Shown here one piece after another: positions 1,636 through 54,493 of a stretch of 64,000 nucleotides of DNA. Position 1 is the stretch's first letter. Each line of letters starts with the position of its first letter. Made by a program: the position numbers and the translations under genes. The DNA is from Clostridiales bacterium. Lineage in GTDB: Bacteria > Bacillota > Clostridia > Christensenellales > Aristaeellaceae. Below the pieces are notes generated by a model. It had not been told where the DNA came from, searched no databases, and was given only the letters and a program-made list of their open reading frames with translations. The stretch lies in assembly GCA_017569285.1 (NCBI GenBank), contig CP069419.1:2604001-2668000 (forward strand). The letters run 5' to 3'.

Positions 1636-1813
1636 GCGGACACGGGGTGTCCGCATCCCTGATTTCGATATTGCACTGAATGCATTGGAGAGGGAAAGCC
1701 GCCGACGACCTCCAGTGGAGGGAGTTTCGTCGGCGGCTTTCTCGCCCGAAACAAGCGATCTCCGCAGTACGGAGTCGCGCCGATTGAGGGCGCGGACCAG
1801 GGGTTCAACTCCC
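1636..1813 (+). repeat. tRNA-associated structured repeat, copy A
   Basis: This is a non-coding unit with ordered hairpins. A conserved block TGCATTGGAGAGGGAAA starts at 1681. A 14-bp stem pairs 1695-1708 with 1727-1740 around an 18-nt loop holding CCTCC-AGT-GGAGG. Then follow a linker CTCGCCCGAAACAAGCG (1741-1757), a hairpin CTCCG-CAGTA-CGGAG (1760-1774), a hairpin CGCGCC-GATTGAG-GGCGCG (1776-1794), and finally a T-arm-like AGGGGTTCAACTCCC (1799-1813). The final element nearly copies the T arm of the adjacent tRNA-Ala(CGC), 230 bp upstream. Copy B at 54115-54245 has the same spacing and compensatory base changes in the stems. A small hairpin GCGGACAC/GTGTCCGC lies at 1636-1654. The function is unknown. 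Confidence 0.8.
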
Positions 1814-1852
1814 AAAATCGAACGAAAGGAACCGTCCCTGCGTTCGAAGTCA

Positions 1853-1879
1853 GCGCCGTCCATTAGGGCGGCGCTTTTA
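1853..1879 (+). terminator. Terminator-like hairpin downstream of repeat copy A
   Basis: GCGCCGTCC (1853-1861) pairs with GGGCGGCGC (1866-1874) around an ATTA loop, with one T-G pair, and is followed by TTTTAT. No gene reads into it from nearby except the tRNA and repeat unit, so it may end the repeat transcript. Confidence 0.55.
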
Positions 1880-2040
1880 TCATCAAGCTCTGAGATGATC
1901 ATGTGGTTGCACGTCAAATATGAAACGGACCTGAACGGAAACGGCTGATCCTGAAGATGTTTTGAGGCTGTCCCCTGGGGGACAGCCTCTTTTATATTTT
2001 CCGGGCGCTCCGAAATCCCTGTGTCCGATGTCCGTCCGGA
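1880..2040 (+). terminator. Gene-free stretch with a second strong terminator hairpin
   Basis: GAGGCTGTCCC pairs with GGGACAGCCTC within 1964-1989, and TTTTATATTTTC follows. Its T run lies on the plus strand, so it terminates rightward transcription arriving toward the convergent CotH-type gene. I see no gene in the rest of this stretch. Confidence 0.6.
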
Positions 2041-4116
2041 TCAGATGGCTTCAGGCGGCATCGGCGGTTTCGGACCGAAGTATTTCTCCATTTCCTTATT
2101 GCTCAGTTTGAAGGCTTTTTTCGTGAAATCCCACAGCCGTGTCGGACGTTTCCGGATCACGTTCCGGAGACGTTCCACCCGCTTCTGCCAGAATTTGTAT
2201 GCGGCTTCCGGCGTCTTCGGCGCTTCGGAAACGATGTGCCTGTCGTTTTCGGGCGCCCAGCGGGTCCAGTGCTGCTCCATCTCCGGTTCAATCAGCGCCA
2301 CCAGTTCTTCCAGCACTTCCATCATCGTGTCCGTTGTCAGTTTCTGATAGATTTCGCCGTATATGGTGAGGTATCGGTCCTTGTACTCCGGAATGGTCAG
2401 CAGCTTCCGGAAGATCGTATTGTCGAAATTCAGCTGGCCCATGCCGCTCTTCTTGGTATAGCTCTTCGGACTGTCGAATCCGGAGTTCCACAGGCCGTAG
2501 TCCAGATCGTTGATCAGCCATTTCCATTTGCTGCCGGGAGTGTTCAGGCGGTACATGCGGAAATTGCCGATATCGCTGTTGCCGAAGAACATCTCGAAAG
2601 CCATAAACGTGAAATAATTGTCCACGTCAACGTTGTCCAGGATATACTGCAGATCCTCCTGTTTTTTGGCTGGGTTGCCGGCTTTGATCTTTTTGATCAT
2701 GGCCTTGTATTCCGTATTGGATCCGCTCTTCACCGCGCCGTTTGCATGCAGCAGGTTCACCTGATCCGCTTCCTCCAGGTCCAGACCTTCGAACTGCGCG
2801 ACCATATATTCGTCCACCCGCTCCCGCAGGTTCATATGGCCCCAGTACTGACCGTTCAGATAGACCGCATAGGGTTTCCATGCCTGATGGGCCACGCTGG
2901 TCCCGAACAGATCCATCAGCCGGCTCTGAAACCCGTCCTGAAGCCTGGTCCACATGCAGTCATTCCCGCTGTTCCGCAGCACAAAGCTTTTATATTCCAC
3001 ATAATCCCGGTCCGGGAACAGTTTTGCCTTGAACGTTTTTTCACCGTATTTGCTTTTTGCCTTGAATTTGAAACTCTTCTGGGGCATGTCCAGCGAATAG
3101 TCGCCGTTCAGGGAGATATCCGCGCCCTGGCAGACAATCCTTTGCCCGGCGTCGTCGTACATTTCCACATAGCTTTCATATTTGACCCCGGAGTTCTTCA
3201 CTTTCCGGTAAACCGTGTTTTTGAAGGGCAGGCCCGCGTCTTTGTTGACGCCCTTTCCAACGGTCAGCATTCCCTGTTTGGGATCCCACAGGTCGTCCGG
3301 ATCCACGGTGACGGATACCACCGGCAGGCTGTGATCCACGTGGATGAAGAACGTTCCGGTCAGCGTTTCGCCGGGCCGGATCATCCCCTCCGCGAAAGCT
3401 TTGGCCCGGATGACGGTGGTTGTGGTGATCTCCAGCGTTTCACCGCCATAAGGCGCGGATTCCCGGGTCGGCTCTGATCCGTCCAGGGTATAAAACACCT
3501 GTGTGTTTTCCGGGACGATGATCTGCAGATACTGGACCGAATCGTAGAAACCGGGCTCCGCCGAGAACGACGGAACCGCTGCATATCCCAGGAAGCCGTC
3601 GCGGTTTGCCGCAAAAGGCGTGGGCGGGTCATAACAGTACAGGCCGCCGTCCGCCGGATTCCGTCCGAAGGAGGTATCCGTCTTCATTTCGGGAAGCGTG
3701 ATCCGGTCATGCACGGCGCCCGCCGCGTCAGTGAGGGTAATCACCTCTCCCTTCTTTTTACTGATCGAGAAAGACGCATGCAGCTCCGCATCCCCGATCT
3801 TTTCCGTGCCCTTGTCGCACAGAATGACCCTGTATTCTCCGGGACGAATGGTGGTTCCGTCAGGGAACAGCCATTTCCGCGGCTTTTCCGGATTGTCGCT
3901 GAGCCCCCATCCGCCCAGATCCACGGCAGTATCTCCGGTATTGAAAATCTCGACCCAGTCGGTATATCCCGCATTCGGATAAGTGGCGACTGAATCATTG
4001 CTGGCCATCACTTCGCTGATGATAATCACCGGATGAAGCGTTTCCTCCGCGATTGACTCATTCCAGGCCATCACCGCCAGAAGCAGAACCACTGCCATGA
4101 TCATCAACCGTTTCAT
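2041..4116 (-). CDS. Secreted CotH-kinase family protein with lamin-tail and chitobiase-like domains
   Basis: The 691-residue product starts with a signal peptide (MKRLMIMAVVLLLAVMAW). Next comes a lamin-tail domain (about 30-150, ISEVMASNDS...DWVEIFN...GGWGLSD). A chitobiase C-terminal-like module follows (YTLDGSEPT, about 200-260). The rest is a CotH-type kinase domain (about 290-650) with GQYWGHMNLRERVDE and the metal-binding-like INDLDYG. CotH proteins are atypical protein kinases known from spore coats, but many gut Clostridia carry secreted versions with lamin-tail domains whose target is unknown. The start is supported by GGAGG eight bases before ATG. The gene is monocistronic, and 137 bp upstream of it hold no gene. 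Family assignment is firm; a sporulation role is not implied. Confidence 0.88.
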   Translation of the reverse strand: MKRLMIMAVVLLLAVMAWNESIAEETLHPVIIISEVMASNDSVATYPNAGYTDWVEIFNTGDTAVDLGGWGLSDNPEKPRKWLFPDGTTIRPGEYRVILCDKGTEKIGDAELHASFSISKKKGEVITLTDAAGAVHDRITLPEMKTDTSFGRNPADGGLYCYDPPTPFAANRDGFLGYAAVPSFSAEPGFYDSVQYLQIIVPENTQVFYTLDGSEPTRESAPYGGETLEITTTTVIRAKAFAEGMIRPGETLTGTFFIHVDHSLPVVSVTVDPDDLWDPKQGMLTVGKGVNKDAGLPFKNTVYRKVKNSGVKYESYVEMYDDAGQRIVCQGADISLNGDYSLDMPQKSFKFKAKSKYGEKTFKAKLFPDRDYVEYKSFVLRNSGNDCMWTRLQDGFQSRLMDLFGTSVAHQAWKPYAVYLNGQYWGHMNLRERVDEYMVAQFEGLDLEEADQVNLLHANGAVKSGSNTEYKAMIKKIKAGNPAKKQEDLQYILDNVDVDNYFTFMAFEMFFGNSDIGNFRMYRLNTPGSKWKWLINDLDYGLWNSGFDSPKSYTKKSGMGQLNFDNTIFRKLLTIPEYKDRYLTIYGEIYQKLTTDTMMEVLEELVALIEPEMEQHWTRWAPENDRHIVSEAPKTPEAAYKFWQKRVERLRNVIRKRPTRLWDFTKKAFKLSNKEMEKYFGPKPPMPPEAI

Positions 4117-4253
4117 CCTTTTTTCCTCCGATCATCGGTTTTCTGCCTGGGGGATATCTTCCGGGACAGATTATACTATAATCCAGGAACCGCGGGCAAC
4201 AAGCCTGGCTGTCAGCGAAACCGGAGGGGCCTGCTGCGGAAAAACCTGCATTG

Positions 4254-5144
4254 TTATGCTTCTTCCGCTCCCCGGAGAATGCTGATCATCTTCCGGTTGA
4301 TCTCCTCCGCCCGCTCATGGTTCAGCCCGTGGCCGGCTTTTTCATAGAACACCGCGTTCATATGGTTCTGCTCCAGGACTTCTCTTCCGCCGATCTTCTC
4401 AAACGGATCTTCCGTTCCGACCAGGTACGTTACCTTGTCCCGGATCTGCCCTACCTCTTCCGGGGTGAAAGCGTGCAGCCTGTGATATCCCATGGCCATA
4501 TTGTTGAAGCCCTTCAGCAGGCTTTTGTAATGGGCCATGATTTCCCTGTTTTCCGTGAATACGGTGTAGTTTTCCCCGCTCAGCTTCCGGAGCAGCCGGG
4601 TTACGTTTCTGTCCGTCGGGAACAGCGCCTCCGGCAGGAAGATCTTCATCATCGCTGACATGGAGTTTTTCTTTCCGCCCACCGGCACAGTGCCGGAAAT
4701 GCTGATGGTTTTCAGCACGCGTTCCGGACGCATCAGGGTATAAATCTGCACCAGGTATCCGCCCATGGATACGCCCGCGAAAAAGGCCTTTTCAATGCCC
4801 AGCGCATCCAGAACGCCGTCCATCCAGCGGACGTTATCGAAGCCCTTGCCGTAGTTCCCGTTGGGCACACTCTTTCCCGGACCTCCCATAGTATCAACGG
4901 CGTAAAGGTGGAAATGCTTCCCCAGTTCCGGCGCGTTATAGATCCACATCAGAGCCGAGTCGTCTCCAACCCCGTGGAAAAGTACCAGCGGCGGGGCACT
5001 CTCTGCTCCGCATTCGATGACGTGGGTTGTTCCGTATTCCGTCTCCACATCTCTTTCCTTTTTCTCACACTGCCAGGAGGCGAGGAGCCGGTCGTAAGTT
5101 TCCAGGACTGCCTGTCCGCTCTTTTCACTTCTGTATTTTCTCAT
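4254..5144 (-). CDS. Alpha/beta hydrolase
   Basis: This 296-residue alpha/beta-fold hydrolase has the oxyanion-hole segment LVLFHGVGDD, the nucleophile elbow GVSMGG and a late catalytic histidine in KAGHGLNHE. No signal peptide is visible, so it should be cytoplasmic. It overlaps the upstream tetR-like gene by four bases (ATGA), so the two are translationally coupled and form one operon. The substrate is unknown. Pairing with a TetR repressor suggests induction by an ester-like or lipophilic compound, which is inference. Confidence 0.88.
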   Translation of the reverse strand: MRKYRSEKSGQAVLETYDRLLASWQCEKKERDVETEYGTTHVIECGAESAPPLVLFHGVGDDSALMWIYNAPELGKHFHLYAVDTMGGPGKSVPNGNYGKGFDNVRWMDGVLDALGIEKAFFAGVSMGGYLVQIYTLMRPERVLKTISISGTVPVGGKKNSMSAMMKIFLPEALFPTDRNVTRLLRKLSGENYTVFTENREIMAHYKSLLKGFNNMAMGYHRLHAFTPEEVGQIRDKVTYLVGTEDPFEKIGGREVLEQNHMNAVFYEKAGHGLNHERAEEINRKMISILRGAEEA

Positions 5145-5734
5145 TTTTCGTCTTCTCCCTTTTCTGAGAATACCCTGTTATAAAAAACCGCCAGGTCCCG
5201 GGCCATTCTGCCCGTATCCCCGGTGAAATAGCCCAGCATGATGATTCCGTGATACTCACCGGCCAGCCGGCCGGCGTCCGTTTCCCGGATTTCCCCGCGG
5301 CCGGCCAGCAGCTCAAACACTTTCGCTTCATGCGCGATCGGGTCAGCAAACATCATCCGCTGCCAGGCTTCCTCCGCCGCAGGCTCATGGAAACGCTCGC
5401 TCTCCAGCATCCGGAGCAGGGGAGCAATCTGTTCATGCCGGAGATAAGCCGTGACATACATGACCCCGGCACGGACAAAGGGTTCACATTCCACCTTTTC
5501 CGTGCTGCCCAGTATCCGGAAAAAGGAGTCCCGTGCTTTTGCGGTCAGCTCATCTGCCCGGACAATCATGTCCCGGACCAGGGCCTGCTTGCTCTCGTAA
5601 TAGTGGTAGATTGTACTGACACTGATACCGACGGATTTCGCCAGGTCCCGCATGGAGACAGCCGCAAAACCTTTTTCGGAAAAGAGCTTCAGCGCTTCCC
5701 GGATAATCAGTTCCTTCCTGTTCTCTTTCGGCAT
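5141..5734 (-). CDS. TetR/AcrR family transcriptional repressor
   Basis: This 197-residue regulator has an N-terminal TetR helix-turn-helix (IREALKLFSEKGFAAVSMRDLAKSVG, then ISVSTIYHYYESKQALV) and a variable ligand-binding C-terminus. I start it at the ATG at 5734, which has a perfect AGGAGG 6 bases upstream. Longer in-frame starts would run through the operator and promoter. A palindromic operator lies 26 bases upstream and overlaps its promoter, so autorepression is likely. The coupled alpha/beta hydrolase is its only obvious target. Confidence 0.92.
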   Translation of the reverse strand: MPKENRKELIIREALKLFSEKGFAAVSMRDLAKSVGISVSTIYHYYESKQALVRDMIVRADELTAKARDSFFRILGSTEKVECEPFVRAGVMYVTAYLRHEQIAPLLRMLESERFHEPAAEEAWQRMMFADPIAHEAKVFELLAGRGEIRETDAGRLAGEYHGIIMLGYFTGDTGRMARDLAVFYNRVFSEKGEDEK

Positions 5735-5759
5735 GGTATCCTCCTGTATATGCAAATAA

Positions 5760-5777
5760 ATCGAACGTTCGTTCGAT
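5760..5777. promoter_or_regulatory. Palindromic TetR operator
   Basis: ATCGAACG-TT-CGTTCGAT is a perfect inverted repeat with 8-base arms and a 2-base centre. It sits between the -10 element and the ribosome binding site of the tetR-like gene, where a bound dimer would block transcription. The size and symmetry fit TetR operators. Confidence 0.8.
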
Positions 5778-5806
5778 ATCGTAACTTTTTTCTCTGAATC
5801 TGTCAA
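5778..5806 (-). promoter_or_regulatory. Promoter of the tetR-hydrolase operon
   Basis: On the minus strand, TTGACA (5806-5801) and TACGAT (5783-5778) are separated by 17 bases. The -10 abuts the palindromic operator. Confidence 0.7.
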
Positions 5807-5925
5807 GCACATAAAAAACGCCGTTCCCTTTGAGGAAACAGCGTTTCGCAGGCATGATGGATGGGCACATATCACTGTTCCCATCGTTTCACTTGTCGCT
5901 GAACATTCTTTCCACTGGCCTGCGA

Positions 5926-6477
5926 TCAGAGGTGCAGCGCTTTGCGGAGCCTGCCGGACAGCAGCAGGGCCAGGGCCAGCTTGACGAGATCCGGCAGGAG
6001 GAAGGGAACCACGCACCAGGCAAGCGCCGTACCCAGGGCGATGGCGCCGGTCTGCCGGGCATACACGAACATGAACCAGGCGGTCCCGAAGGCATAGCAA
6101 AGCAGGAGCCCCAGTACCATGGAGATGATCCGGATGATCCGGCTGTCCATGCTCAGCCGCTCCCCGAGCCAGTAGACGAGCCCCATGAGTATGAAACCCA
6201 GCAGATACCCTCCGGTGGTTCCGAAGAGGATGCCGATGCCGCCGCTGAAGCCCGCGAACACCGGGACGCCCAGGGCGCCCAGCAGAAGATAGACCAGGAT
6301 GGCAGCGGTGCCCCGCCTGCCTCCCAGGAGCCCCAGGCTGCAGAAGACGGCGAAGGTCTGCAGCGTGAACGGCACCGTTGCCGGGATGCTGATCCACGAG
6401 CACACCGCCATCAGCGCGGCACATACCGCCACATAAGCCAGGTCGATTGCCTGGAATCCCTTAGTTTTCCTTTCCAT
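5926..6477 (-). CDS. bioY: BioY biotin transporter (ECF S component)
   Basis: This 183-residue membrane protein has about six hydrophobic segments and the BioY hallmarks PATVPFTLQTFAVF, GGRRGTAAILVYLLLGALGVPVFAGFSGG (in parts) and FGTTGGYLLGF. It binds biotin in the membrane and works alone or with a shared ECF energising module, which is not in this window. I start it at ATG 6477, where GGAAGGG lies eight bases upstream; a longer frame would overlap too much of the upstream gene. It overlaps DUF1284 by 17 bases and ends the birA-DUF1284-bioY operon, so its expression should follow biotin supply through BirA. Confidence 0.95.
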   Translation of the reverse strand: MERKTKGFQAIDLAYVAVCAALMAVCSWISIPATVPFTLQTFAVFCSLGLLGGRRGTAAILVYLLLGALGVPVFAGFSGGIGILFGTTGGYLLGFILMGLVYWLGERLSMDSRIIRIISMVLGLLLCYAFGTAWFMFVYARQTGAIALGTALAWCVVPFLLPDLVKLALALLLSGRLRKALHL

Positions 6478-6862
6478 ATATCCATCCCTTCCGCGTGTTC
6501 CTGCACAGTTCGAACCACTCGCAGCATCCGCAAACCTTCTCAAATGTATTCTTTTCGAGCACCTGCTCCCTGGCAGTGCGGGCCAGGGCGCTCCAGCTGC
6601 GCGTTTCGCCCGCGGAGAAGCCGCAGGCCTCCAGCACACCCCTGTCCAGGCGGTTCACCTTTTCTTCGGAAGCGCACCTGCTGCCGGTCATATGCGGGCA
6701 GGCGGCACATATATCATCCCGTCCTTCGACGAGCGTGACGGCAGTGCCGGGACAGGCTGAAAGCCGGCGGATGAGTGCTTCCATGCCGGCGGCAAAAGCG
6801 TCATCGTACCCGCTGCCGATGTACTTCTGGATGCACAGCAGATGATGGGGCCGTAGCTTCAT
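6461..6862 (-). CDS. DUF1284 family cysteine-rich protein
   Basis: This 133-residue protein opens with MKLRPHHLLCIQKYIG, the DUF1284 signature. It carries several conserved cysteines (DDICAACPHM, SRCAS, KVCGCCEWFELC) that suggest an iron-sulfur or metal site. The family has no established function. It lies between birA and bioY with coding overlaps on both sides (4 bases with birA, 17 with bioY), so it is co-expressed with biotin uptake. The start is supported by GTGAGG eight bases upstream. Confidence 0.85.
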   Translation of the reverse strand: MKLRPHHLLCIQKYIGSGYDDAFAAGMEALIRRLSACPGTAVTLVEGRDDICAACPHMTGSRCASEEKVNRLDRGVLEACGFSAGETRSWSALARTAREQVLEKNTFEKVCGCCEWFELCRNTRKGWIYGKEN

Positions 6863-7878
6863 GAAACGGGCCTCACACTTACTTCGCCGGAAGAAAGGGC
6901 TTCCGCAGAGCCGTCCTCATAGCGGACCAGCAGGCGGCACTCGTCGTCAATGCCGTATGCGATGGCCGGCCGGGTCCCGCCGCCGCGGATGACGTTGACG
7001 GGCCGGCCGATCAGGAAGCTCCTCGCTTTATATTCCTCCGTAAAGCCTCCGGTTTCCAGGTCCGCGTACACTTCGCGGAAGCTCTTCAGGAAAGCAGCCG
7101 CGATCCGGCTCCGGAGGTCCCGACGGCGGGTCAGGGCGATGGGCCCGGCGATGGTCTGCAGTTCCCCGGGGAAGCCTCCCTCCGGTTCGTACACGTTGAA
7201 CCCGATGCCCATGATGGCCCAGTCCATGCCTCCGCTTTCCAGATCGACGGACGCCTCCGTCAGGATGCCGCATGTCTTCCTGCCATCGATCAGGATGTCG
7301 TTGACCCATTTGATGCAGGGCTTCCGCTCCGGACTTTCCCCGGCAGTGCAGGCTTCTATCGCGCGGCAGGCTGCCACAGCCGCCGCCGTGGTGATCCGCA
7401 CCGCCCGGCTGGCGGAAAGATGCGGTGTGAGAAACACGCTCAGATACACGCCGGTGCCCGCGGGGGAGACGAAGGTCCGGCCCATACGGCCCCGGCCGGC
7501 GCTCTGGCTCCCTGCGATGACCGTCCGCCAGGGCGCGGATTCACTGCTCCCGGCGGCCTTCAGTTCGGGGGCCATACGCTTGAGGCAGGTGTTGGTGGAA
7601 TCCACCTCGCTGAGCACCTCCACGTCGAACAGCGGGGCCGCATCGCCCAGATACCGGAGGACAGCGTTTTTGCTGACTGCGTCGCTCTCTTCGCTGAGGC
7701 GGTATCCCTTCCGGGTTACCTCGACACGATAGCCGTCCTCTTCCATCTGGCGGATACATTTCCATACCGCTGCACGGGTGATGCCCAGTTCTTTCGCGAT
7801 GGCGTTTCCCGACAGGTATTCCTGTCCGGCTTCCTCCAGAAGCGCGGAAACCTGCTGTCTGGCGTTCACGGACTGCAT
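6859..7878 (-). CDS. birA: Bifunctional biotin-protein ligase / biotin operon repressor
   Basis: The 339-residue protein has an N-terminal winged helix (EYLSGNAIAKELGITRAAVWKCIRQMEEDGY) and a biotin-protein ligase domain with the biotinyl-AMP loop SAGRGRMGR and the core KWVNDILIDGRK. A C-terminal SH3-like domain ends it. It attaches biotin to carrier proteins and, as biotinyl-AMP-bound dimer, represses transcription. Two starts are possible. ATG 7878 sits very close to its AAGGGAG, while GTG 7869 has a nine-base spacing. A matching operator lies about 55 bases upstream. Confidence 0.95.
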   Translation of the reverse strand: MQSVNARQQVSALLEEAGQEYLSGNAIAKELGITRAAVWKCIRQMEEDGYRVEVTRKGYRLSEESDAVSKNAVLRYLGDAAPLFDVEVLSEVDSTNTCLKRMAPELKAAGSSESAPWRTVIAGSQSAGRGRMGRTFVSPAGTGVYLSVFLTPHLSASRAVRITTAAAVAACRAIEACTAGESPERKPCIKWVNDILIDGRKTCGILTEASVDLESGGMDWAIMGIGFNVYEPEGGFPGELQTIAGPIALTRRRDLRSRIAAAFLKSFREVYADLETGGFTEEYKARSFLIGRPVNVIRGGGTRPAIAYGIDDECRLLVRYEDGSAEALSSGEVSVRPVS

Positions 7879-7911
7879 CTCCCTTCCTGCTGATCACTTT
7901 TTGCGTCCCGT

Positions 7912-7940
7912 AGGATAGCACATAAAACATATTACGTCAA
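7912..7940 (-). promoter_or_regulatory. Promoter of the birA-DUF1284-bioY operon
   Basis: On the minus strand, TTGACG (7940-7935) and TATCCT (7917-7912) are separated by 17 bases. The -35 lies inside the downstream half of the predicted BirA operator. Confidence 0.65.
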
Positions 7941-7966
7941 CTTTATGAACTATAAAAAGTTTACAT
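7934..7966. promoter_or_regulatory. Predicted BirA operator
   Basis: On the minus strand, ATGTAAACT and AGTTGACGT form an inverted repeat (7 of 9 matches) with a 15-base spacer. Firmicute BirA sites are known to have a GTTAAC-type half-site pair with 14-15 bases between. The position over the -35 fits autorepression by biotinyl-AMP-BirA. Confidence 0.65.
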
Positions 7967-8024
7967 AGAGCGATTTCATCCCCGGATCTGCAGATCGGGG
8001 AACGAAAGAATACATGTTCCATGG

Positions 8025-8060
8025 TTGACGCACCGAAATGGAATGGATATACTATGTATA
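8025..8060 (+). promoter_or_regulatory. mazEF promoter with overlapping palindrome
   Basis: TTGACG (8025-8030) and TATACT (8048-8053) are 17 bases apart. The -10 overlaps a perfect 13-base palindrome, TATAC-TAT-GTATA (8048-8060). Toxin-antitoxin modules are usually autoregulated by the antitoxin binding such a site. Confidence 0.65.
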
Positions 8061-8083
8061 TACAAACAAAGAAGGGTGATAAA

Positions 8084-8641: not shown

Positions 8642-8694
8642 GGCAGGCTGGTGAACTTCCTGAATACAGCCGACAGGAAAAGGAGAAAGGATAA

Positions 8695-9180: not shown

Positions 9181-9305
9181 TCCGGTACAGCGAAATCCGC
9201 GGAAAAGTTATCGCAAAATCCCCGCTTTCATGAAGGAAAAGAAAGCACCTGAAGAGAATAAGAAAAGAAGTTTATAACCACAGTTTCATATAAGGAGGTT
9301 TTTTC

Positions 9306-10094: not shown

Positions 10095-10112
10095 GCGAAG
10101 GAAAACAAAAAC

Positions 10113-47529: not shown

Positions 47530-47555
47530 AAGGCAAAGATCCGAGAGGCACAGAC

Positions 47556-48422
47556 ATGAGAAAATACCTGAGAACCCATAAGCGGGAAATCCTGATGGCA
47601 TACGCGCAGATCTTCATCGGCAGCGTGATCGGGGCGGCGGCATATCCCACATTCCTGATTCCGAACAACATCGCCCCGGGCGGGCTGACCGGCGTGGCCA
47701 CGATCCTGAATTACCTGGCCGGATGGCCGGTCGGTATCACGGCCCTGGTGCTGAACATCCCGCTGTTCCTGATCGGATACCGGACGATGGGCAAGGTGTT
47801 CGCCTTCCGGAGCCTGGTGGCAACGGCGCTGTTCACCATCCTGATCGATATCCTGCCCCTGAAGCCCGTGAGCGAGGATCCGCTGCTCGGAACGCTGTTC
47901 GGCGGCGTGGTGCTGGGCATCGGGCTCGGCCTGATCCTGCGCGGCGGCGCGACGACGGGCGGATCGGACATGATTGCCCGGATGGTGCACCGGCGGTTCA
48001 GCTTCATTACGGTGGGCATGTTCCTGTTTGCGCTGGACTTCCTGGTCGTGCTGGCGGCCGCGATTTTCATCGGCGGAACCCAGGCGCTCTACGCGATGAT
48101 CGACATTTACGTATGCAGCCGCGTGATCGACGCGGTGATGGTCGGCTTCGGCGGCAACAAGGCCTGCTTTGTGATGACCGATGCATGGCAGAAAGTAACA
48201 GGCCGCGTCCTGAATGAAATCGAACGCGGTTGTACACTGCTGGAAGCCAAGGGTGCCTATTCCGGCACAAGCCGGCCGGTGGTGATGTGCGTGATGTCCC
48301 GGCAGGAAATGACTGCCCTCAAGCGCATCGTGCAGGAGGAGGACGAGAAGGCCTTCATGTTCATCACAGACGCGCACGAGGCGCTGGGAGAAGGCTTCTC
48401 CCGGCTGGACGGAAAGGACTGA
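47556..48422 (+). CDS. YitT family membrane protein
   Basis: This 288-residue protein has five membrane segments with the YitT pattern (FLIPNNIAPGGLTGVATILN, RGGATTGGSDMIARMVHRRF) and a C-terminal soluble DUF2179 domain (GCTLLEAKGAYSGTSRPVVMCVMSRQEM). The biological role of the family is unknown. It follows the NusG-II gene after 26 bases, so it likely shares its transcript. It ends next to the convergent MocR-like gene with no spacer (48422/48423). Confidence 0.92.
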   Translation: MRKYLRTHKREILMAYAQIFIGSVIGAAAYPTFLIPNNIAPGGLTGVATILNYLAGWPVGITALVLNIPLFLIGYRTMGKVFAFRSLVATALFTILIDILPLKPVSEDPLLGTLFGGVVLGIGLGLILRGGATTGGSDMIARMVHRRFSFITVGMFLFALDFLVVLAAAIFIGGTQALYAMIDIYVCSRVIDAVMVGFGGNKACFVMTDAWQKVTGRVLNEIERGCTLLEAKGAYSGTSRPVVMCVMSRQEMTALKRIVQEEDEKAFMFITDAHEALGEGFSRLDGKD

Positions 48423-49493
48423 TCAGCCGGATACCCGCCGGCGCTCATTGCGGCGGATGCGGTTGATGTGGCGTTCAAAATCCCCGCTGTTGATGAGTTC
48501 CGCGAGCACATACTGCTCGAAGGCGGGCACGGAACAGGAGTAGAAACCGAGCCTTTGGGTGAACTCCGGAACCAGGCGGAGCGGAAGCACCATGTAGCCC
48601 ACACGGACGGAGGGCGAAACGGTGCGCGTAAACGTATTGAGGTAAATGACATTCTGCGACGGGGCGGCGGCAAACACGGTTTCCTCCACCTTGCGGAGGA
48701 GGGAGAACTCGGATTCGTAATCGTCCTCGACGATGTACCGGTCCGGGCCGGAGGCCCAGCGCAGGTATTCCCGCCGCTTGGAGGCGGAGGCGGTGACGCC
48801 GCTGGGGAAGCTGCGGAACGGCGTGATATGCAGGACGGATGCCTGCGTGGACGCCAGCGCTTCCGACCGGATCCCGTCACTGCCCAGCGGCAGGAGATCA
48901 CAGGCAACCCCTTTCGAGCGGTAAATCCGCTCGATTTTTTCGTAGGAAGGGGATTCGATGCCGTACAGCCGGCCGCTGCCGAGCAGCTCCACCACCAGGC
49001 CGTAGAGGTATTCCGCACCGGAACCGATGACGATCTGTTCCGGGGATACCCGGATGCCCCGGTTCCGCGCCAGGTAGCGGCTGACCGCGTCGCGCAGCTC
49101 CAGGCAGCCGGTGTTCGGCGGCTTCACCAGGATGGCTTCCCCGTAATCCGAAAGAACGCGGCGCATGACCCGGGCCAGGGCCGGGAACGGGAAGGAATCA
49201 TGGCTGCCGGTTTCGGAAGGCGGAAGGGCACGGAATGCCGGGCGGACGGGCAGGGAGAAGCCGTCCGACTCCCGGTAGATGACATAATAGCCGCTCTTCG
49301 GCCGGGATTCGGCATATCCCTCCTCGCACAGCAGCTCATAGCAGTGGTCCACGGTGACCGGGCTGATGCCCCGGTCCTGGGCGAGGGAACGGCGGGAGGG
49401 AAGCCGGCTGCCGCAGGCGCGGGTGCCGGACAGGATCTCCTCCCGCAGGGTCTCATACAGCGCCAGGTAGGCGGGTTTTCTCTTCTCTTCCAT
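48423..49493 (-). CDS. MocR/PdxR-like GntR regulator without the PLP lysine
   Basis: This 356-residue protein has a GntR winged helix (LRLPSRRSLAQDRGISPVTV-type, residues about 25-70) and an aminotransferase-like domain with IVIGSGAEYLYGL, HITPFRSFPSGVT and IVEDDYESEF. Where the PLP Schiff-base Lys is expected, the sequence is NTFTRTVSPSVRVGY: the usual SK is TR. The C-terminus ends at RRNERRRVSG, about 90 residues before a normal MocR end. It may not use PLP in the usual way. It diverges from an ECF S component and two TACCAG repeats lie between them. Confidence 0.82.
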   Translation of the reverse strand: MEEKRKPAYLALYETLREEILSGTRACGSRLPSRRSLAQDRGISPVTVDHCYELLCEEGYAESRPKSGYYVIYRESDGFSLPVRPAFRALPPSETGSHDSFPFPALARVMRRVLSDYGEAILVKPPNTGCLELRDAVSRYLARNRGIRVSPEQIVIGSGAEYLYGLVVELLGSGRLYGIESPSYEKIERIYRSKGVACDLLPLGSDGIRSEALASTQASVLHITPFRSFPSGVTASASKRREYLRWASGPDRYIVEDDYESEFSLLRKVEETVFAAAPSQNVIYLNTFTRTVSPSVRVGYMVLPLRLVPEFTQRLGFYSCSVPAFEQYVLAELINSGDFERHINRIRRNERRRVSG

Positions 49494-49586
49494 CTGGTAT
49501 TATAAAAAACTCCTTTTCTGGTACTTTTCATATAGCCAAGCAGAGTCTATACTACACGGCAAGCAAAGTCAAGGAGTTGGTTGGAG
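49494..49586. promoter_or_regulatory. Divergent control region with MocR-like direct repeats
   Basis: CTGGTAT (49494-49500) and CTGGTAC (49518-49524) are direct repeats 24 bases apart. On the minus strand they read ATACCAG and GTACCAG; GabR, a MocR regulator, is known to bind ATACCA direct repeats. A ribosome site AAGGAG (49571-49576) precedes the S-component start. Confidence 0.55.
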
Positions 49587-50144
49587 ATGTCGAAGTCCAA
49601 GGTTCAGCTGATCAGGATTGTTTTCGGGGCCGTGCTGGCGGCCATGGTTTTTGTCGTGACGATGTTCCGGTTCCCGCTGCTGGGATCCAAGGTGCATTTT
49701 GCCAACGCGGTGTGCCTGCTGAGCGGCCTGCTGCTGGGACCGGTGTGGGGCGGATTTGCCGCCGGCATGGGATCCATGCTGTATGACCTGTTCCTGTACA
49801 ACGAGGGAATTATCAACCTGCTGATTACCTTCGTGTCCAAGTTCGCAATGGCCTGGGTGACCGCGATGCTGTTCCGGGCATTCGGCGAAAAGCGCCGCAA
49901 GCCGGTGAACCTGGTGATCGTGTGCGCGGCCGGCGCGCTGACCTATGTGGCACTGTACATGGTGAAATCGGCCATCTACGGCGCGATCGCGGGCAATGCC
50001 TGGGCGGCGGTGGCCAGCAAGTTCCCGGCGTCCATCATCAACGCGGCGGTGGCGACCATCGCGGCACCGATCTTCTACGGTGCGGTCCTGCCGGCCCTGA
50101 AGAGCGCCGGAATCCTGCAGGAACTGGAAGCCGCAAAAGGGTAA
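49587..50144 (+). CDS. ECF transporter S component
   Basis: This 185-residue membrane protein has about six helices and S-component signatures of the ECF riboflavin-type family (PF07155-like): FPLLGSKVHFANAVCLLSGLL then GPVWGGFAAGMGSMLYDL. It captures a vitamin and needs an ECF energising module encoded elsewhere. The substrate is unknown. The divergent MocR-like gene suggests a B6 vitamer or related compound, which is inference. I start at ATG 49587, ten bases after AAGGAG, not at an upstream TTG. Confidence 0.88.
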   Translation: MSKSKVQLIRIVFGAVLAAMVFVVTMFRFPLLGSKVHFANAVCLLSGLLLGPVWGGFAAGMGSMLYDLFLYNEGIINLLITFVSKFAMAWVTAMLFRAFGEKRRKPVNLVIVCAAGALTYVALYMVKSAIYGAIAGNAWAAVASKFPASIINAAVATIAAPIFYGAVLPALKSAGILQELEAAKG

Positions 50145-50165
50145 AAAACAGACAGCAAAATTGTC

Positions 50166-50194
50166 TTGACATCTTTGCGTTTCGGGATTAAGAT
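50166..50194 (+). promoter_or_regulatory. Promoter of the thiamine operon
   Basis: TTGACA (50166-50171) and TAAGAT (50189-50194) are 17 bases apart and lie directly before the riboswitch. Confidence 0.75.
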
Positions 50195-50287
50195 ACTCCC
50201 CGAGCTAGGGGAGCGAAACGCTGAGATTGTAAGTAATTACAGACCCTCATTACCTGATCCGGTTAATGCCGGCGTAGGGAAGCGAGT
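50195..50287 (+). ncRNA. TPP riboswitch
   Basis: The THI-element core is present: GCTGAGA, then GACCC, ACCTGATCCGGTTAATGCCGG and CGTAGGGAAGC, with the outer stem ACTC/GAGT. It controls the thiamine-precursor transporter and thiamine pyrophosphokinase. A terminator hairpin follows 27 bases later, so TPP should cause premature termination. Confidence 0.97.
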
Positions 50288-50313
50288 TTTAACAGCTGTG
50301 CAATTCTGACATG

Positions 50314-50345
50314 ACAGAACTCCCCCGTGGAGTTCTGTTTTTTTG
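50314..50345 (+). terminator. Expression-platform terminator of the TPP riboswitch
   Basis: ACAGAACTCC (50314-50323) pairs with GGAGTTCTGT (50329-50338) and a run of seven Ts follows, before the first gene of the operon. Confidence 0.92.
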
Positions 50346-50393
50346 CGTTTTCCGCCCCGGGCACCCCGGGAAAAAAGAAAGGAGAAAAGAAAA

Positions 50394-50690
50394 ATGGAAT
50401 CCAGTGTTGCCATCCAGGTTTTGCCGAAGGTACAGGATACAAAGGAAGTGTGCCGGATCGTGGACGAGGTGATCGCCTACATTGCGGGCACGGGGTACAA
50501 CTATTTTGTGGGGCCGTTTGAAACCACGATTGAGGGGCCGTACGATGCGCTGATGGACATCGTGAAGGAATGCCAGCATGTGGCCGTCCGGGCCGGCGCG
50601 CCGGGCGTTTCCGCGTACATCAAGGTGGCCTATAAACCGGAAGGTGAGGTCCTCTCCATTGATCAGAAAATCGGAAAGTATCAGAAATAA
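50394..50690 (+). CDS. Thiamine-binding MTH1187/YkoF-like protein
   Basis: This 98-residue protein belongs to the MTH1187/YqgV thiamine-binding family: VAIQVLPKVQDTKEVCRIVDEVIAYIA at the start and YNYFVGPFETTIEGPYDALMDIV. YkoF-type members bind thiamine or hydroxymethylpyrimidine in the cytoplasm. I start at ATG 50394, after AAAGGAG. It is first in the riboswitch-controlled operon and overlaps the permease gene by 32 bases if that starts at its TTG. Confidence 0.9.
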   Translation: MESSVAIQVLPKVQDTKEVCRIVDEVIAYIAGTGYNYFVGPFETTIEGPYDALMDIVKECQHVAVRAGAPGVSAYIKVAYKPEGEVLSIDQKIGKYQK

Positions 50691-51444
50691 GCTGCTGCCG
50701 GCCGGGGCACTGTGCCTGCTGGTGCTGGTGTGGTGGGGACTGGCTGCATCCGGGTTGATTCCCAATTATATGCTGCCCTCCCCGGCAGACGTTTTCAGCG
50801 CCTTTGTGCGGGACTTCCCGGTCCTGCTCAGCCATGCGGGCGTCTCCCTGACGGAGGCAGCGTACGGGCTGGGAATCGGAACGCTGCTGGCATTTGCGCT
50901 GGCATGCGCCATGGACCGGTTTGAGCTGCTGGAAAAGGCCGGGCTTCCTCTGCTGGTGATCACCCAGACAATTCCGACGGTGGCCATCGCGCCGCTGCTG
51001 GTGCTGTGGATGGGCTTCGGCATGGAGCCCAAGATCACCCTGGTGGTGATCACCACGTTTTTCCCGATCGCGATCGGCCTGCTGGACGGATTCAAGCGAG
51101 CGGACCCGGATGCCATCGCTCTGCTGAAGTCCATGAACGCTACCCGCGGGCAGATCTTCCGGCATGTGAAGCTGCCGGCGGCCCTGCCGCATTTCTTCTC
51201 GGGCCTCCGCGTCTCCGCCTCCTATGCGGTGGTGGGCGCGGTGATTGCCGAATGGCTGGGCGGGTTTGAAGGGCTCGGCGTCTACATGACCCGCGTCCGG
51301 AAGGCTTATGCCTTTGACAAGATGTTCGCGGTGATCATCCTGGTAGTAATTGTAAGCCTCCTGCTGATGAAGCTGGTCAGCATCATCCGGAACGCGGCCA
51401 TGCCGTGGCTCCGGTACCGGCAGGAGGGAACCGGCAGCAACTGA
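50659..51444 (+). CDS. thiX: Thiamine-precursor ABC transporter permease
   Basis: This 261-residue permease has about six membrane segments and the BPD-type cytoplasmic loop (LLKSMNATRGQIFRHVKLPAALPHFFSGLRV). It resembles ThiX/SsuC-type permeases. The TTG at 50659 is my start: AAGGTGAGG lies nine bases upstream, and no ATG fits. It overlaps the end of the thiamine-binding protein gene, giving tight coupling. With ThiY and ThiZ it should import formylaminopyrimidine or hydroxymethylpyrimidine. Confidence 0.9.
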   Translation: MIRKSESIRNKLLPAGALCLLVLVWWGLAASGLIPNYMLPSPADVFSAFVRDFPVLLSHAGVSLTEAAYGLGIGTLLAFALACAMDRFELLEKAGLPLLVITQTIPTVAIAPLLVLWMGFGMEPKITLVVITTFFPIAIGLLDGFKRADPDAIALLKSMNATRGQIFRHVKLPAALPHFFSGLRVSASYAVVGAVIAEWLGGFEGLGVYMTRVRKAYAFDKMFAVIILVVIVSLLLMKLVSIIRNAAMPWLRYRQEGTGSN

Positions 51445-51473
51445 GGCCGGAAAAATGAAAGGACTGTATTGAA

Positions 51474-52466
51474 ATGAAAAGGATTCTGACTGTACTGCTT
51501 GCTGTGATGCTTCTTCCCGTGATTTCCACCGCAGCGGCGGATGACGCCCTGGTTCCCGTGACGTTCTGCCTGGACTGGACCCCCAACACAAACCATACCG
51601 GCGTGTATGCCGCGCAGGCACTTGGATACTACCGGGAAGCCGGCCTGGACGTGAAAATCGTGCAGCCGCCGGAAGACGGCGCGACCCTGATGTGCGCCGC
51701 CGGACAGGCGCAGTTCTCCGTGACCGCGCAGGACAGCATGGCGGCCGCCCTGGACCGGGATGATCCGCTGTGCGTGACCGCGGTGGCCGCGGTGCTGCAG
51801 CACAACACCTCCGGCATCATCTCCCGGAAGGGCGACGGGATTACCTCCCCGAAGGGAATGGAAGGCAAGGTCTACTCCACCTGGGAAAGCCCCGTGGAGC
51901 TGGCAATGCTGCGCTGGTGCATGGAGAAGGACGGCGCCGATTTCGACAAGGTTCGCCTGATCCCGAACAACATCACGGATGAACCCGGCGCCCTGCAGGC
52001 GCACCAGACGGATTCCATCTGGGTGTTCTACGGATGGGGCGCGATCGGCGCCGGGCTGCGAAACATCGAATGCGACTACTGGGACTTCGCTTCCCTGGGC
52101 AAAGAACTGGACTATTACACCCCGGTGATCCTGGGGAACAACGACTTCCTGCAGAATTCCCCGGAGACCGCCCGGGCATTCCTGGAAGCGACCGCCAAAG
52201 GCTACCGCTACGCGGCGGAGCATCCGCAGGAAGCCGCGGATATGCTGATCGCCGGGGACAATACCCGGTCGCTGGAGGACTCCCGGGAGCTGGTTTACGC
52301 CAGCCAGGAATGGATTTCCGCGCAGTATATCGCGGACGCGGCCGACTGGGGCGTGTTTGACCCGGAAAGATGGGATGCCTTCTACGGCTGGCTGTTTGAG
52401 AACAACCTGACCGCCCATGACCTGCGCGGCATCGGATACAGCAACGACTACCTGCCGAAGGACTGA
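51474..52466 (+). CDS. thiY: Thiamine-precursor substrate-binding protein
   Basis: This 330-residue exported protein has a signal peptide (MKRILTVLLAVMLLPVISTA) and an NMT1/THI5-like binding domain: TFCLDWTPNTNHTGVYAAQALGYYREAGLDV and AAGQAQFSVTAQDS. It closely follows the ThiY pattern for pyrimidine precursors of thiamine. No lipobox Cys is obvious, so anchoring is uncertain. It lies between the permease and ATPase under the TPP riboswitch. Confidence 0.93.
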   Translation: MKRILTVLLAVMLLPVISTAAADDALVPVTFCLDWTPNTNHTGVYAAQALGYYREAGLDVKIVQPPEDGATLMCAAGQAQFSVTAQDSMAAALDRDDPLCVTAVAAVLQHNTSGIISRKGDGITSPKGMEGKVYSTWESPVELAMLRWCMEKDGADFDKVRLIPNNITDEPGALQAHQTDSIWVFYGWGAIGAGLRNIECDYWDFASLGKELDYYTPVILGNNDFLQNSPETARAFLEATAKGYRYAAEHPQEAADMLIAGDNTRSLEDSRELVYASQEWISAQYIADAADWGVFDPERWDAFYGWLFENNLTAHDLRGIGYSNDYLPKD

Positions 52467-52470
52467 TACG

Positions 52471-53211
52471 ATGGAACTGCTGGAAACAAGCGGGATTTCC
52501 AAATCATTTGATTCCCGGGAAGTGATCCGCGACATCTCCGTCCGGCTTTCGGAAGGGGAGATCGTGTCCCTGCTGGGATTGAGCGGATCCGGGAAAACCA
52601 CGCTGCTGAACATCATTTCCGGGCTGGTCCGGCCCGATGCCGGAAAGGTTTTCCTTTCCGGCACGGATATCACCGGCCGGCCCGGCCAGGTGAGCTATAT
52701 GCTGCAGAAGGACCTGCTGCTGGAGCACAAGCGCGTGATTGACAATGTGACGCTGCCGCTGGTGATCCGCGGAATGAAGAAGGAAGAAGCCGCGAAACAG
52801 GCGAATGTTTATTTTGAACAGTTCGGGCTGGCCGGAACGGAGAAGATGTATCCCGCACAGCTGTCCGGCGGCATGCGCCAGCGCGCGGCTCTGCTGCGGA
52901 CCTACCTGGCATCCCATGGCGTGGTGTTGCTGGACGAGCCGTTTTCAGCGCTGGATATGATCACCAAAGGCCAGATGCACCGGTGGTACCTGGAGGTCGC
53001 CCGGAAGATCGGACTGTCCACCCTGCTGATTACCCATGACGTGGACGAAGCGATTATGCTGTCCGACCGGATTTACCTGCTGACGGGAACGCCCGGGGAG
53101 ATCCGGCATGAAATCCGGGTTCCCGCGGAACGGGACGACCGGAAGGACTTTGACCTGAAACCGGCATTCCTGAAATGCAAGCAGGAAATCCGGGAGATCC
53201 TGGGAGCCTGA
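52471..53211 (+). CDS. thiZ: Thiamine-precursor ABC transporter ATPase
   Basis: This 246-residue ATPase has Walker A GLSGSGKTT, signature LSGGMRQRAALLR, Walker B VVLLDEPFSALD and the H-loop ITHDVDEA, typical for nitrate/taurine/ThiZ-type importers. It starts at ATG 52471, four bases after the thiY stop. Together with the two preceding genes it makes a complete importer. Confidence 0.93.
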   Translation: MELLETSGISKSFDSREVIRDISVRLSEGEIVSLLGLSGSGKTTLLNIISGLVRPDAGKVFLSGTDITGRPGQVSYMLQKDLLLEHKRVIDNVTLPLVIRGMKKEEAAKQANVYFEQFGLAGTEKMYPAQLSGGMRQRAALLRTYLASHGVVLLDEPFSALDMITKGQMHRWYLEVARKIGLSTLLITHDVDEAIMLSDRIYLLTGTPGEIRHEIRVPAERDDRKDFDLKPAFLKCKQEIREILGA

Positions 53212-53232
53212 AAAAAGGGGAGGGAACCTGCC

Positions 53233-53871
53233 ATGAAGCGATGCGTGATTATCGGCGGCGCCGGAATCACCCGGTATGACCGGATCAACCGTTTCCTGCG
53301 GGAGGATGATTTCGGCATATTCTGCGACTGCGGGCTGCGGCATCTTACCCTCCTGCAGGTGAAGCCGGGCCTGATCGTCGGGGATTTTGACTCCCATGAG
53401 AAACCGGATACGGACGTGGAAACCATCGTGCTGCCCCGCGAGAAGGATGATACGGATACCTTCTTTGCGGTGAAGGAAGCGGTGCGGCGGGGATATGACG
53501 ACTTCCTCCTGATCGGCGTGATCGGCGAACGACTGGATCACACCCTGGCAAACCTCTCCATCCTGCAGTACCTGGACGCGGCGGGGAAAACCGCCTGCAT
53601 TCTGGACGACTGGTCCGAGACGCGCATCATCTCCCGCGGTGAGGCGGAAGTCAGCGATGACTGCGCGTATTTCTCCCTCCTGGCCGTCGGCGGCCTCGCG
53701 GCGGGAATCCGGATCACCGGGGCGAAATACCCCCTGGAGGACGGAACGATCACCGGGGAATTCCAGTACGGCGTGAGCAACGAGGTCCTGCCCGGGCAAA
53801 CCGCCCGCATCTCCCTGCGGGAAGGCCGGCTCCTGCTGGTAAAGGTTTTCCAGGATGAATTCCCGTCGTAA
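53233..53871 (+). CDS. thiN: Thiamine pyrophosphokinase
   Basis: This 212-residue enzyme has the TPK motifs GDFDS (around 49-53) and EKDDTDTFFAVKEA, then GERLDHTLANLSIL. It transfers pyrophosphate from ATP to thiamine, giving TPP. It closes the riboswitch operon 21 bases after thiZ. The presence of thiN with importers and no thiamine biosynthesis genes in this window suggests salvage. GGGGAGGG precedes the ATG. Confidence 0.95.
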   Translation: MKRCVIIGGAGITRYDRINRFLREDDFGIFCDCGLRHLTLLQVKPGLIVGDFDSHEKPDTDVETIVLPREKDDTDTFFAVKEAVRRGYDDFLLIGVIGERLDHTLANLSILQYLDAAGKTACILDDWSETRIISRGEAEVSDDCAYFSLLAVGGLAAGIRITGAKYPLEDGTITGEFQYGVSNEVLPGQTARISLREGRLLLVKVFQDEFPS

Positions 53872-53952
53872 CCCAAAGCACAACGCCAAACGAAAAAATC
53901 CGAAAAAACCGCTTTACAAACTGCGCCGGATATGATAATATATCCGCTGTTC

Positions 53953-54025
53953 GGGGCATTAGCGCAGTTGGTAGCGCACAACACTGGCAGTGTTGGGGTC
54001 AGGAGTTCGAATCTCCTATGCTCCA
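53953..54025 (+). tRNA. tRNA-Ala, anticodon GGC
   Basis: A complete 73-base cloverleaf: acceptor GGGGCAT/ATGCTCC (one G-T), D stem GCGC/GCGC, anticodon stem CAACA/TGTTG with loop CTGGCAG, so anticodon GGC for Ala GCC. The T arm is AGGAG-TTCGAAT-CTCCT and the discriminator A. CCA is not encoded. It shares most of its sequence with tRNA-Ala(CGC) and is followed by a tandem repeat array. Confidence 0.95.
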
Positions 54026-54033
54026 CAAAAAAC

Positions 54034-54063
54034 CAGACATCCCTTGTGGATGTCTGATTTTTT
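54034..54063 (+). terminator. Intrinsic terminator after tRNA-Ala(GGC)
   Basis: CAGACATCC (54034-54042) pairs with GGATGTCTG (54048-54056), followed by ATTTTTTTG. It lies in the same place as the terminator after tRNA-Ala(CGC) but has a different sequence. Confidence 0.85.
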
Positions 54064-54114
54064 TGTTTTGGAGCACAGTCGATTCGCCCTCCTGCCTCCC
54101 AACACTCGCGCCAG

Positions 54115-54248
54115 TGCAGTGGAGGGGGAAAAGCTCTGTCGACCGCCGGTGGCGGAAATTTCGACAGAGCTTTTCTCGCCCGAAACAAGCGATCTGCCCA
54201 GTGGGCAGTTGCGCCGATTGAGGGCGCGGACAGGAGTTCGAATTTAGT
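54115..54248 (+). repeat. tRNA-associated structured repeat, copy B
   Basis: This copy matches copy A (1681-1813) in layout and spacing. The start block is TGCAGTGGAGGGGGAAA, and a 14-bp stem pairs 54129-54142 with 54161-54174 around an 18-nt loop with CCGCC-GGT-GGCGG. The same linker CTCGCCCGAAACAAGCG starts at 54175, then hairpins CTGCC-CAGTG-GGCAG (54194-54208) and GCGCC-GATTGAG-GGCGC. It ends with AGGAGTTCGAAT (54232 on), part of the T arm of the adjacent tRNA. Five stem positions differ from copy A and all are compensated. Confidence 0.82.
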
Positions 54249-54283
54249 TCAACCGACCGCCTGCGGCGGGAATCTCATCGAAT

Positions 54284-54367
54284 CTTTTCTCAACCGAAAG
54301 GGAGCAGTCTCCCCAGTGGGGAGCTGCGACCATTGAGGTTGCGGACAGGAGTTCGAATCTCCTATGC
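54284..54367 (+). repeat. tRNA-associated structured repeat, copy C (partial)
   Basis: The long 5' stem is degraded, but the linker (CTCAACCGAAAGGGAGCAG), the hairpin CTCCCC-AGT-GGGGAG (54309-54323) and the hairpin TGCGAC-CATTGAG-GTTGCG remain. It ends in AGGAGTTCGAATCTCCTATG (54347-54366), identical to the tRNA-Ala(GGC) T arm plus the start of its acceptor strand. Confidence 0.72.
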
Positions 54368-54417
54368 AATTAGCCACCCAATGGACTGTCGGCGAAGCCG
54401 AAATGAAGTGAGTTCGT

Positions 54418-54493
54418 CAGCCGAAACGAGCAGTGCGACCGTTCCAAGGGAGTAATGCGACGATTGAGGTTGCGGACAGGAGTTCGAATCTCC
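54418..54493 (+). repeat. tRNA-associated structured repeat, copy D (degenerate)
   Basis: It retains CAGCCGAAACGAGCAG, the hairpin TGCGAC-GATTGAG-GTTGCG (around 54457-54475) and a final AGGAGTTCGAATCTCC (54478-54493). The middle hairpin is degenerate. No copy follows. Confidence 0.62.

What the first reader, a model, noticed from the sequence alone, without database searches (positions are those of the whole stretch)
1636..54493. A structured repeat unit with covarying hairpins lies downstream of both tRNA-Ala genes
Copies A (1681-1813) and B (54115-54248) have the same order of elements and nearly the same spacing: 60 bases from the start block to the CTCGCCC linker in both, then 58 and 57 bases to the T-arm-like end. 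A 14-bp stem differs at five positions and every change is compensated; so are changes in the CCTCC/GGAGG versus CCGCC/GGCGG hairpin and in CTCCG/CGGAG versus CTGCC/GGCAG. Loops and linkers stay conserved (CTCGCCCGAAACAAGCG, GATTGAG). This pattern is expected of a functional RNA or a structured DNA element, not of random sequence. I do not know a named family with this layout.
Basis: seen in the sequence. Interest (0 to 1): 0.82.

Follow-up and report, generated by a model that had tools for sequence, protein, structure and literature searches.

The report
Mobile folded DNA repeat beside tRNAs
The structured units beside the two alanine tRNA genes are copies of a roughly 102-base, two-hairpin mobile repeat that is scattered through the genomes of one genus of uncultured Clostridia, lands in tRNA genes, at gene ends and even in frame inside proteins, and is moved by something still unknown.

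Summary
In detail: the copies are real, A-C fold better than shuffles, and the stems covary strongly. But the unit is misjudged. The 'T-arm-like end' is the local tRNA's own T-arm, i.e. the insertion target.

A covariance model finds 47 matches in this genome and matches in 37 of 37 genomes of the genus; in 297 genomes of the order only this family is hit. The tRNA-Ala(GGC) site is filled in 11 of 26 readable loci, empty in 12, remnant in 3. Copies also sit at transporter stop codons, in a 5S rRNA terminator, inside one another, and in frame (34 codons) in a mutS-like gene and phage-like genes. So it is a REP/RPE-like mobile palindrome, not a tRNA-linked functional RNA.

Full-length stems show no G-U excess over A-C, and the closest copies mostly carry uncompensated changes: this fits a DNA hairpin needed for propagation, with inserted copies decaying. 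The mover is unknown: no RVT_1 reverse transcriptase in four near-closed genomes, and most RAYT genes examined carry a different repeat. No Rfam family matches.

The parts
1521..1594 (+). tRNA-Ala(CGC), intact; host gene next to unit A
   Evidence: ARAGORN, Rfam
1656..1693 (+). inverted piece of the tRNA 3' half (about 1656-1682) followed by a short forward piece (1683-1693) ending in GG, left flank of unit A
   Evidence: read by eye against the tRNA
1694..1796 (+). unit A, type I, 103 bp
   Evidence: blastn, model R1, covariation
1694..1741 (+). domain 1 of A: arms 1694-1708 / 1727-1741, inner stem 1709-1713 / 1717-1721, bulge 1722-1726
1743..1792 (+). domain 2 of A: stem 1743-1747 / 1788-1792, GAAAC..GATTGAG internal loop, distal hairpin
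   Evidence: covariation; not in the single-sequence minimum-energy fold of A
1797..1813 (+). T-arm piece of the local tRNA-Ala(CGC): target, not unit
   Evidence: filled/empty comparison
53953..54026 (+). tRNA-Ala(GGC), intact; host gene next to units B-D
54069..54127 (+). inverted piece of the tRNA 3' half (about 54069-54117) and a short forward piece, left flank of unit B
   Evidence: read by eye
54128..54230 (+). unit B, type I, 103 bp (domain 1 54128-54175, domain 2 54177-54226)
54231..54245 (+). T-arm piece of tRNA-Ala(GGC) after B
54250..54345 (+). unit C, type I with a broken 5' arm in domain 1
   Evidence: model match 80.7 bits
54346..54367 (+). T-arm and acceptor piece of tRNA-Ala(GGC) after C
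54383..54476 (+). unit D, truncated type II
   Evidence: weak model match E=0.017, fold z -1.16; subtype by eye against L235-L240
54477..54493 (+). T-arm piece of tRNA-Ala(GGC) after D

Best explanation
A non-autonomous, selfish mobile palindromic element of one family of uncultured Clostridia. Shown: a unit of about 102 bp (103 for A and B) with two covarying hairpin domains, preceded by GG and ending in GCGG(A), dispersed, often tandem, present or absent at the same site in related species, found in tRNA T-stem regions, terminators, transporter gene ends, phage-like genes and other copies. Inferred: something acting in trans recognises the folded DNA (single strand or cruciform) and inserts it 3' of GG; selection for being copied keeps the stems of propagating copies perfectly paired, while inserted copies decay; the T-arm ends and inverted tRNA pieces are host sequence rearranged around insertions in the T-stem so that an intact tRNA gene remains.
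For: 47 model matches in the genome, 37 of 37 genus genomes, 45, 33 and 35 matches in three more near-closed genomes. Filled and empty versions of one site: tRNA-Ala(GGC) 11 filled, 12 empty, 3 remnants of 26 readable loci; host hairpin CCAGGG..CCCTGG empty in L186, L182, L105 and filled in L111, L114, L130, L137, L158 and L190. Seven copies of equal score (110.2 bits) on seven contigs of one assembly. GG before the unit: G at -2 in 89 and at -1 in 94 of 94 non-redundant copies. In-frame copies in a mutS-like gene, four tandem ones in G031. Close copies carry mostly one-sided stem changes (26 vs 8 two-sided; 21 vs 7), distant ones mostly two-sided. G-T 35 vs A-C 30 of 3072 cells, and 4 vs 8 of 2062, in full-length rows. 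Both DNA strands of A and B fold better than 200 of 200 shuffles.
Against: No mover and no autonomous copy found. No replication-strand bias, as a lagging-strand single-strand mover would predict (90 of 160, P=0.13). Hairpin context at the target is only weakly enriched (14 of 94 vs 6.4% of 1880 controls with a stem of 6 bp or more, Fisher P=0.005; Mann-Whitney P=0.06). In the single-sequence folds of A and B the domain-2 long stem is not the minimum-energy choice. Over all rows of A3, misfit subtypes included, G-T exceeds A-C (67 vs 11). The long duplicated flanks at tRNA and 5S sites are not derived from a simple insertion. No movement was observed.
Confidence: 0.72

Rival explanations
1. 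A functional structured RNA (regulatory, processing or stabilising), kept for its action in tRNA operons and transporter mRNAs.
For: Strong covariation and conserved loops. 17 of 19 tRNA-near rows lie in the tRNA's orientation. Eight chosen copies overlap the stop codon of a gene ending in KG; the two sent to Pfam are BPD_transp_1 permeases. In one TAA-stop case (L042) and in L011 the basal stem appears to pair across the stop codon.
Against: No G-U excess in full-length copies; presence/absence between related species; copies in frame in protein genes on either strand; recent copies carry uncompensated changes. Gene-orientation counts were unusable.
Confidence: 0.12
2. A REP/MITE moved by a Y1 (HUH) tyrosine transposase of the IS200/RAYT kind acting on single-stranded hairpins.
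For: Y1 genes in 28 of 45 genomes. Insertion 3' of a short fixed sequence without obvious target duplication at the simple sites. Strong DNA hairpins.
Against: Of 20 regions around RAYT-like genes only 3 hold any model match at E<=10, while 13 have the GGGACGGT(T)C repeat on both sides of the gene (my count). The IS200-like copies inspected have other ends. 17 of 45 genomes show no Y1, among them G032 (91% complete) with 18 unit matches. No strand bias.
Confidence: 0.2
3. Arms kept identical by template switching or hairpin conversion during replication, so that covariation says nothing about function; spread by replication accidents rather than an enzyme.
For: Two-sided Watson-Crick changes dominate between distant copies. 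Inverted tRNA pieces next to the units look like fold-back copying. Repeat conversion has been proposed for coding palindromes (passages of PMC6649704).
Against: Close copies show mostly one-sided changes, so correction is not fast. Fixed edges, conserved internal loops, and replacement of tandem G.A steps by ordinary pairs point to a recognised structure.
Confidence: 0.15
4. A SINE-like retroelement moved by a reverse transcriptase.
For: Short, structured, dispersed, next to tRNAs.
Against: No RVT_1 match in G000, G002, G023 or G036, which hold 33-47 unit matches each; RVT_1 in 14 of 45 genomes.
Confidence: 0.03

Closest known systems
Rickettsia palindromic elements (RPE; passages of PMC3767692)
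   Same: 100-150 bp repeats of palindromic kind that also sit inside open reading frames without destroying them
   Different: Different phylum; here two hairpin domains, exchangeable domain 1, tRNA T-stem sites, tandem in-frame arrays; no sequence relation was tested
REP elements, GTAG and CGTC superfamilies (abstract and passages of PMC3733652)
   Same: Dispersed palindromes, partly intragenic; CGTC REPs are reported to lack a dedicated transposase
   Different: REPs are 20-40 bp single stem-loops with a GTAG or CGTC tag at one end; this unit is about 102 bp and composite. CGTC occurs inside its stem in some copies, not as an unpaired end
IS200/IS605-type MITEs (recalled)
   Same: End hairpins, no target duplication, insertion 3' of a short fixed sequence
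   Different: No matching transposase ends found; no replication-strand bias
Coding palindromes of Nematomorpha mitochondria (passages of PMC6649704)
   Same: Paired arms inside coding sequence
   Different: Those are long perfect repeats without the conserved loops and edges seen here

Membership tests
Rickettsia palindromic elements (as a kind) | repeat of about 100-150 bp that folds on itself | tested here: met
   102-104 bp tandem periods, folding and covariation
Rickettsia palindromic elements (as a kind) | in-frame copies inside protein genes | tested here: met
   mutS-like gene in 2 of 29 readable loci; phage-like genes
Rickettsia palindromic elements (as a family) | sequence homology to RPE-1 to RPE-8 | not tested
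   no RPE sequence was compared
REP/RAYT system | unit flanks the RAYT gene | tested here: not met
   3 unit matches in 20 RAYT regions; a different repeat on both sides in 13 of 20
REP/RAYT system | 20-40 bp stem-loop with an unpaired GTAG or CGTC end | tested here: not met
   edges GG|NCGAAC..GCGGA
IS200/IS605-type element | lagging-strand orientation bias | tested here: not met
   90 of 160, P=0.13; 74 of 133 clusters, P=0.22; terminus assumed opposite dnaA
IS200/IS605-type element | cutting of folded element DNA by a Y1 transposase | not testable with these tools
   needs biochemistry
Rfam RNA families | score above a family's gathering cut-off over the unit | tested here: not met
RT-based retroelement | reverse transcriptase in genomes rich in units | tested here: not met
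   0 PF00078 matches in G000, G002, G023, G036

The most novel reading that the evidence does not exclude
A new class of mobile element that is read as folded DNA by an enzyme of a kind not yet tied to short repeats: exchangeable hairpin domains around one conserved tandem-GA loop, insertion 3' of GG, use of tRNA T-stems with rebuilding of an intact tRNA gene, and 34-codon units open on either strand that seed tandem protein repeats.
Probability: 0.3. Interest if true: 0.8.

Novelty: new variant of a known kind. Interest (0 to 1): 0.58.

Why it matters
How RPE-like palindromes spread, and why they sit in frame inside proteins, is an open question known mainly from intracellular bacteria (the last part is recalled). 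This family is abundant, partly young, polymorphic between related Clostridia, and has sharp edges and empty sites, so the search for its mover becomes practical. It also shows that strong covariation beside tRNA genes need not mean a functional RNA: pair statistics and the decay of recent copies point to selection for propagation instead.

Tried and rejected
Rfam at gathering and permissive thresholds: no family over the unit. Blastn of copy B against plasmids and phages: no match; pattern scans of viral contigs: 2 and 7 contigs, 7 in all. Autonomous copy with a gene between the domains: none seen in 393 loci (1.88 Mb), where a pattern called 136 domain-1 hits complete and I read the other 78 by eye; a structured middle module of about 70 bp was seen instead. 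Reverse transcriptase and RAYT as movers: see rivals. Orientation relative to genes from simple reading-frame calls was dropped as unreliable, because long spurious antisense frames swamp it. A general rule of insertion into hairpin loops, expected, was only weakly supported. Integron attC sites, hammerhead ribozymes, kink-turns and IS110 bridge RNAs were considered from memory and not tested. Literature: seven search listings showed no title on this unit; I read passages of PMC3767692, PMC6649704 and PMC3733652, and the abstract of the last; no other paper was opened.
Full report
WHAT IS THERE. Downstream of tRNA-Ala(CGC) (1521-1594) and tRNA-Ala(GGC) (53953-54026) lie one and three units. 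A (1694-1796) and B (54128-54230) are full-length; C has a broken first arm; D is a truncated member of a second subtype. Two corrections matter. First, CTCGCCCGAAACAAGCG is not just a linker: CGCCC pairs with the GGGCG that follows GATTGA, and this stem covaries across copies (CAACC/GGTTG, CAGCC/GGCTG, CGCCC/GGGCG). It rests on covariation; in the single-sequence folds of A and B it is not the minimum-energy choice. Second, the T-arm-like end is not part of the unit.

THE UNIT. Domain 1 is a hairpin of variable but matched arms, an inner 5-bp stem with a 3-nt loop, and a 5-nt bulge (often AAATT). Domain 2 is a 5-bp stem, an internal loop CGAAA..ATTGAG that can be drawn as tandem G.A pairs, and a distal hairpin. 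In several copies the tandem G.A steps are replaced by ordinary pairs (e.g. CAAACTTTA/TATAAAGTTTG in L381). Tandem copies repeat at 102-104 bp (four copies in L131). A second form of domain 1 (type II) and an inserted third module occur with the same kind of domain 2, so the family is modular.

IT IS DISPERSED. Blastn with copy B gives 18 matches in this genome. A covariance model from 14 copies gives 47 at E<=0.1, A-D included. It hits 37 of 37 genomes of the genus and 0 of 24 from other families of the order. In 297 genomes drawn from the order it hits 5 of 5 listed for the genus, 2 of 18 other listed members of the family (two other genera, about 34-42 bits) and 0 of the remaining 274; that call scored few candidates per genome with strict filters, so misses are possible. 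The full range is therefore not known.

WHERE IT SITS. (i) tRNA genes: 19 of 143 rows from four near-closed genomes lie within 310 bp of a tRNA (Ala, Arg, Pro, Val, Met, Ser, Asn), 17 in its orientation; a few loci were fetched twice and are counted twice, and not every match was fetched. In L015 a tRNA-Ser copy is interrupted in the T-stem by a type II unit, and an intact copy follows. In the tRNA-Ala(GGC) locus the filled layout, read by eye, is: tRNA, terminator, inverted tRNA 3' half, forward tRNA piece, unit, T-arm piece; in L238, L239 and L254 the last piece runs on into the acceptor end and another terminator. Of 26 readable loci 11 are filled (six type I-like, five type II), 3 carry remnants and 12 are empty (L230 was cut off and left out; loci without the motif I searched for were not printed). 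(ii) Gene ends: eight copies that I chose overlap the stop codon of a gene ending in KG; the two sent to Pfam match BPD_transp_1. (iii) Hairpins: the loop of a host repeat CCAGGG..CCCTGG, with empty relatives L186, L182 and L105; hairpins of other units (L098, L119, L334, L350, by eye); the terminator after a 5S rRNA gene, which is duplicated on both sides of the unit (L148; 5S at 487-603; duplication read by eye). (iv) Proteins: one copy in a mutS-like gene of this genome (Pfam MutS_V below its cut-off; the name mutS2 is recalled) and four tandem 34-residue repeats in G031, against 27 of 29 readable loci without a unit, 17 of them with the plain 26-residue form and 10 with other linkers. Phage-like genes carry it in frame on either strand: a DUF2213 / head-maturation-protease-like gene whose PHROG match spans the unit; an endolysin-like gene on a viral contig, matched only downstream of the unit; and a tail-completion-like gene, matched only downstream. 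For the last two, that the upstream part belongs to the same gene is inferred.

EDGES. From 200 model matches 94 non-redundant copies with flanks remained; the two bases left of the unit are G in 89 and 94 of 94, and the base after GCGG is A in 64 of 94. L103 beside the empty form GCGCAGGTCTGGGGG seen in relatives reads GCGCAGG | unit | TCTGGGGG, without target duplication (by eye). The tRNA and 5S sites do show long duplicated flanks, which I cannot derive from the same mechanism. Stems across joined flanks are only weakly enriched.

RNA OR DNA. In the 120-match alignment 31 of 32 pairs have two-sided changes. In full-length rows, however, G-T (35, 13 of them at one doubtful pair) does not clearly exceed A-C (30); in the top 80 rows of the other set it is 4 to 8. 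All rows of that other set, misfit subtypes included, give 67 to 11, so the claim rests on the full-length rows. RNA helices normally tolerate G-U (general knowledge), so this favours DNA. Close pairs of copies carry mostly one-sided changes (26 vs 8, 21 vs 7), distant pairs mostly two-sided (730 vs 8209, 3031 vs 13884; the pairs are not independent): inserted copies seem to decay and propagating ones to be kept paired. Both DNA strands of A and B fold better than all 200 shuffles.

WHAT MOVES IT. Unknown. PF00078 has no match in the four near-closed genomes. Y1 transposases exist in 28 of 45 genomes, but among 20 regions around RAYT-like genes 13 have a different repeat, GGGACGGT(T)C, on both sides of the gene (my count), and only 3 hold a unit match. 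No replication-strand bias (90 of 160). No autonomous copy was seen.

COMPARISON. It works like an RPE or REP: a selfish palindrome with intragenic copies. By the tests above it is not part of a RAYT-REP system; homology to RPE was not tested. The searches listed under Tried and rejected showed no report of it.

Noticed in passing
window 1828-1838 and 54579-54589; L279-L298: A second short repeat, GGGACGGT(T)C / GA(A)CCGTCCC, lies beside both arrays and brackets 13 of 20 RAYT-like genes examined in the genus: probably the RAYTs' own REP/TIR.
   Followed up: partly
L394 (G031), mutS-like gene: Four tandem in-frame units encode a 34-residue protein repeat in a MutS-like protein.
   Followed up: partly
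L393-L422, mutS-like gene: The same spot in the protein carries unrelated linkers of varied length in 10 of 29 readable loci.
   Followed up: no
L015 425-806: A tRNA-Ser copy interrupted by a type II unit, followed by an intact copy with the same upstream sequence.
   Followed up: partly
L242, L244: Sequence that looks like a reverse-strand tyrosine integrase gene lies downstream of tRNA-Ala(GGC) in two genomes (by eye).
   Followed up: no
L130, L137, L158, L186, L190: Units sit in the loop of another, longer dispersed repeat of about 200 bp with a terminator-like end.
   Followed up: no
window 50197-50297, 62531-62633, 62162-62400: Two TPP riboswitches and a T-box leader, ordinary Rfam matches.
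   Followed up: no
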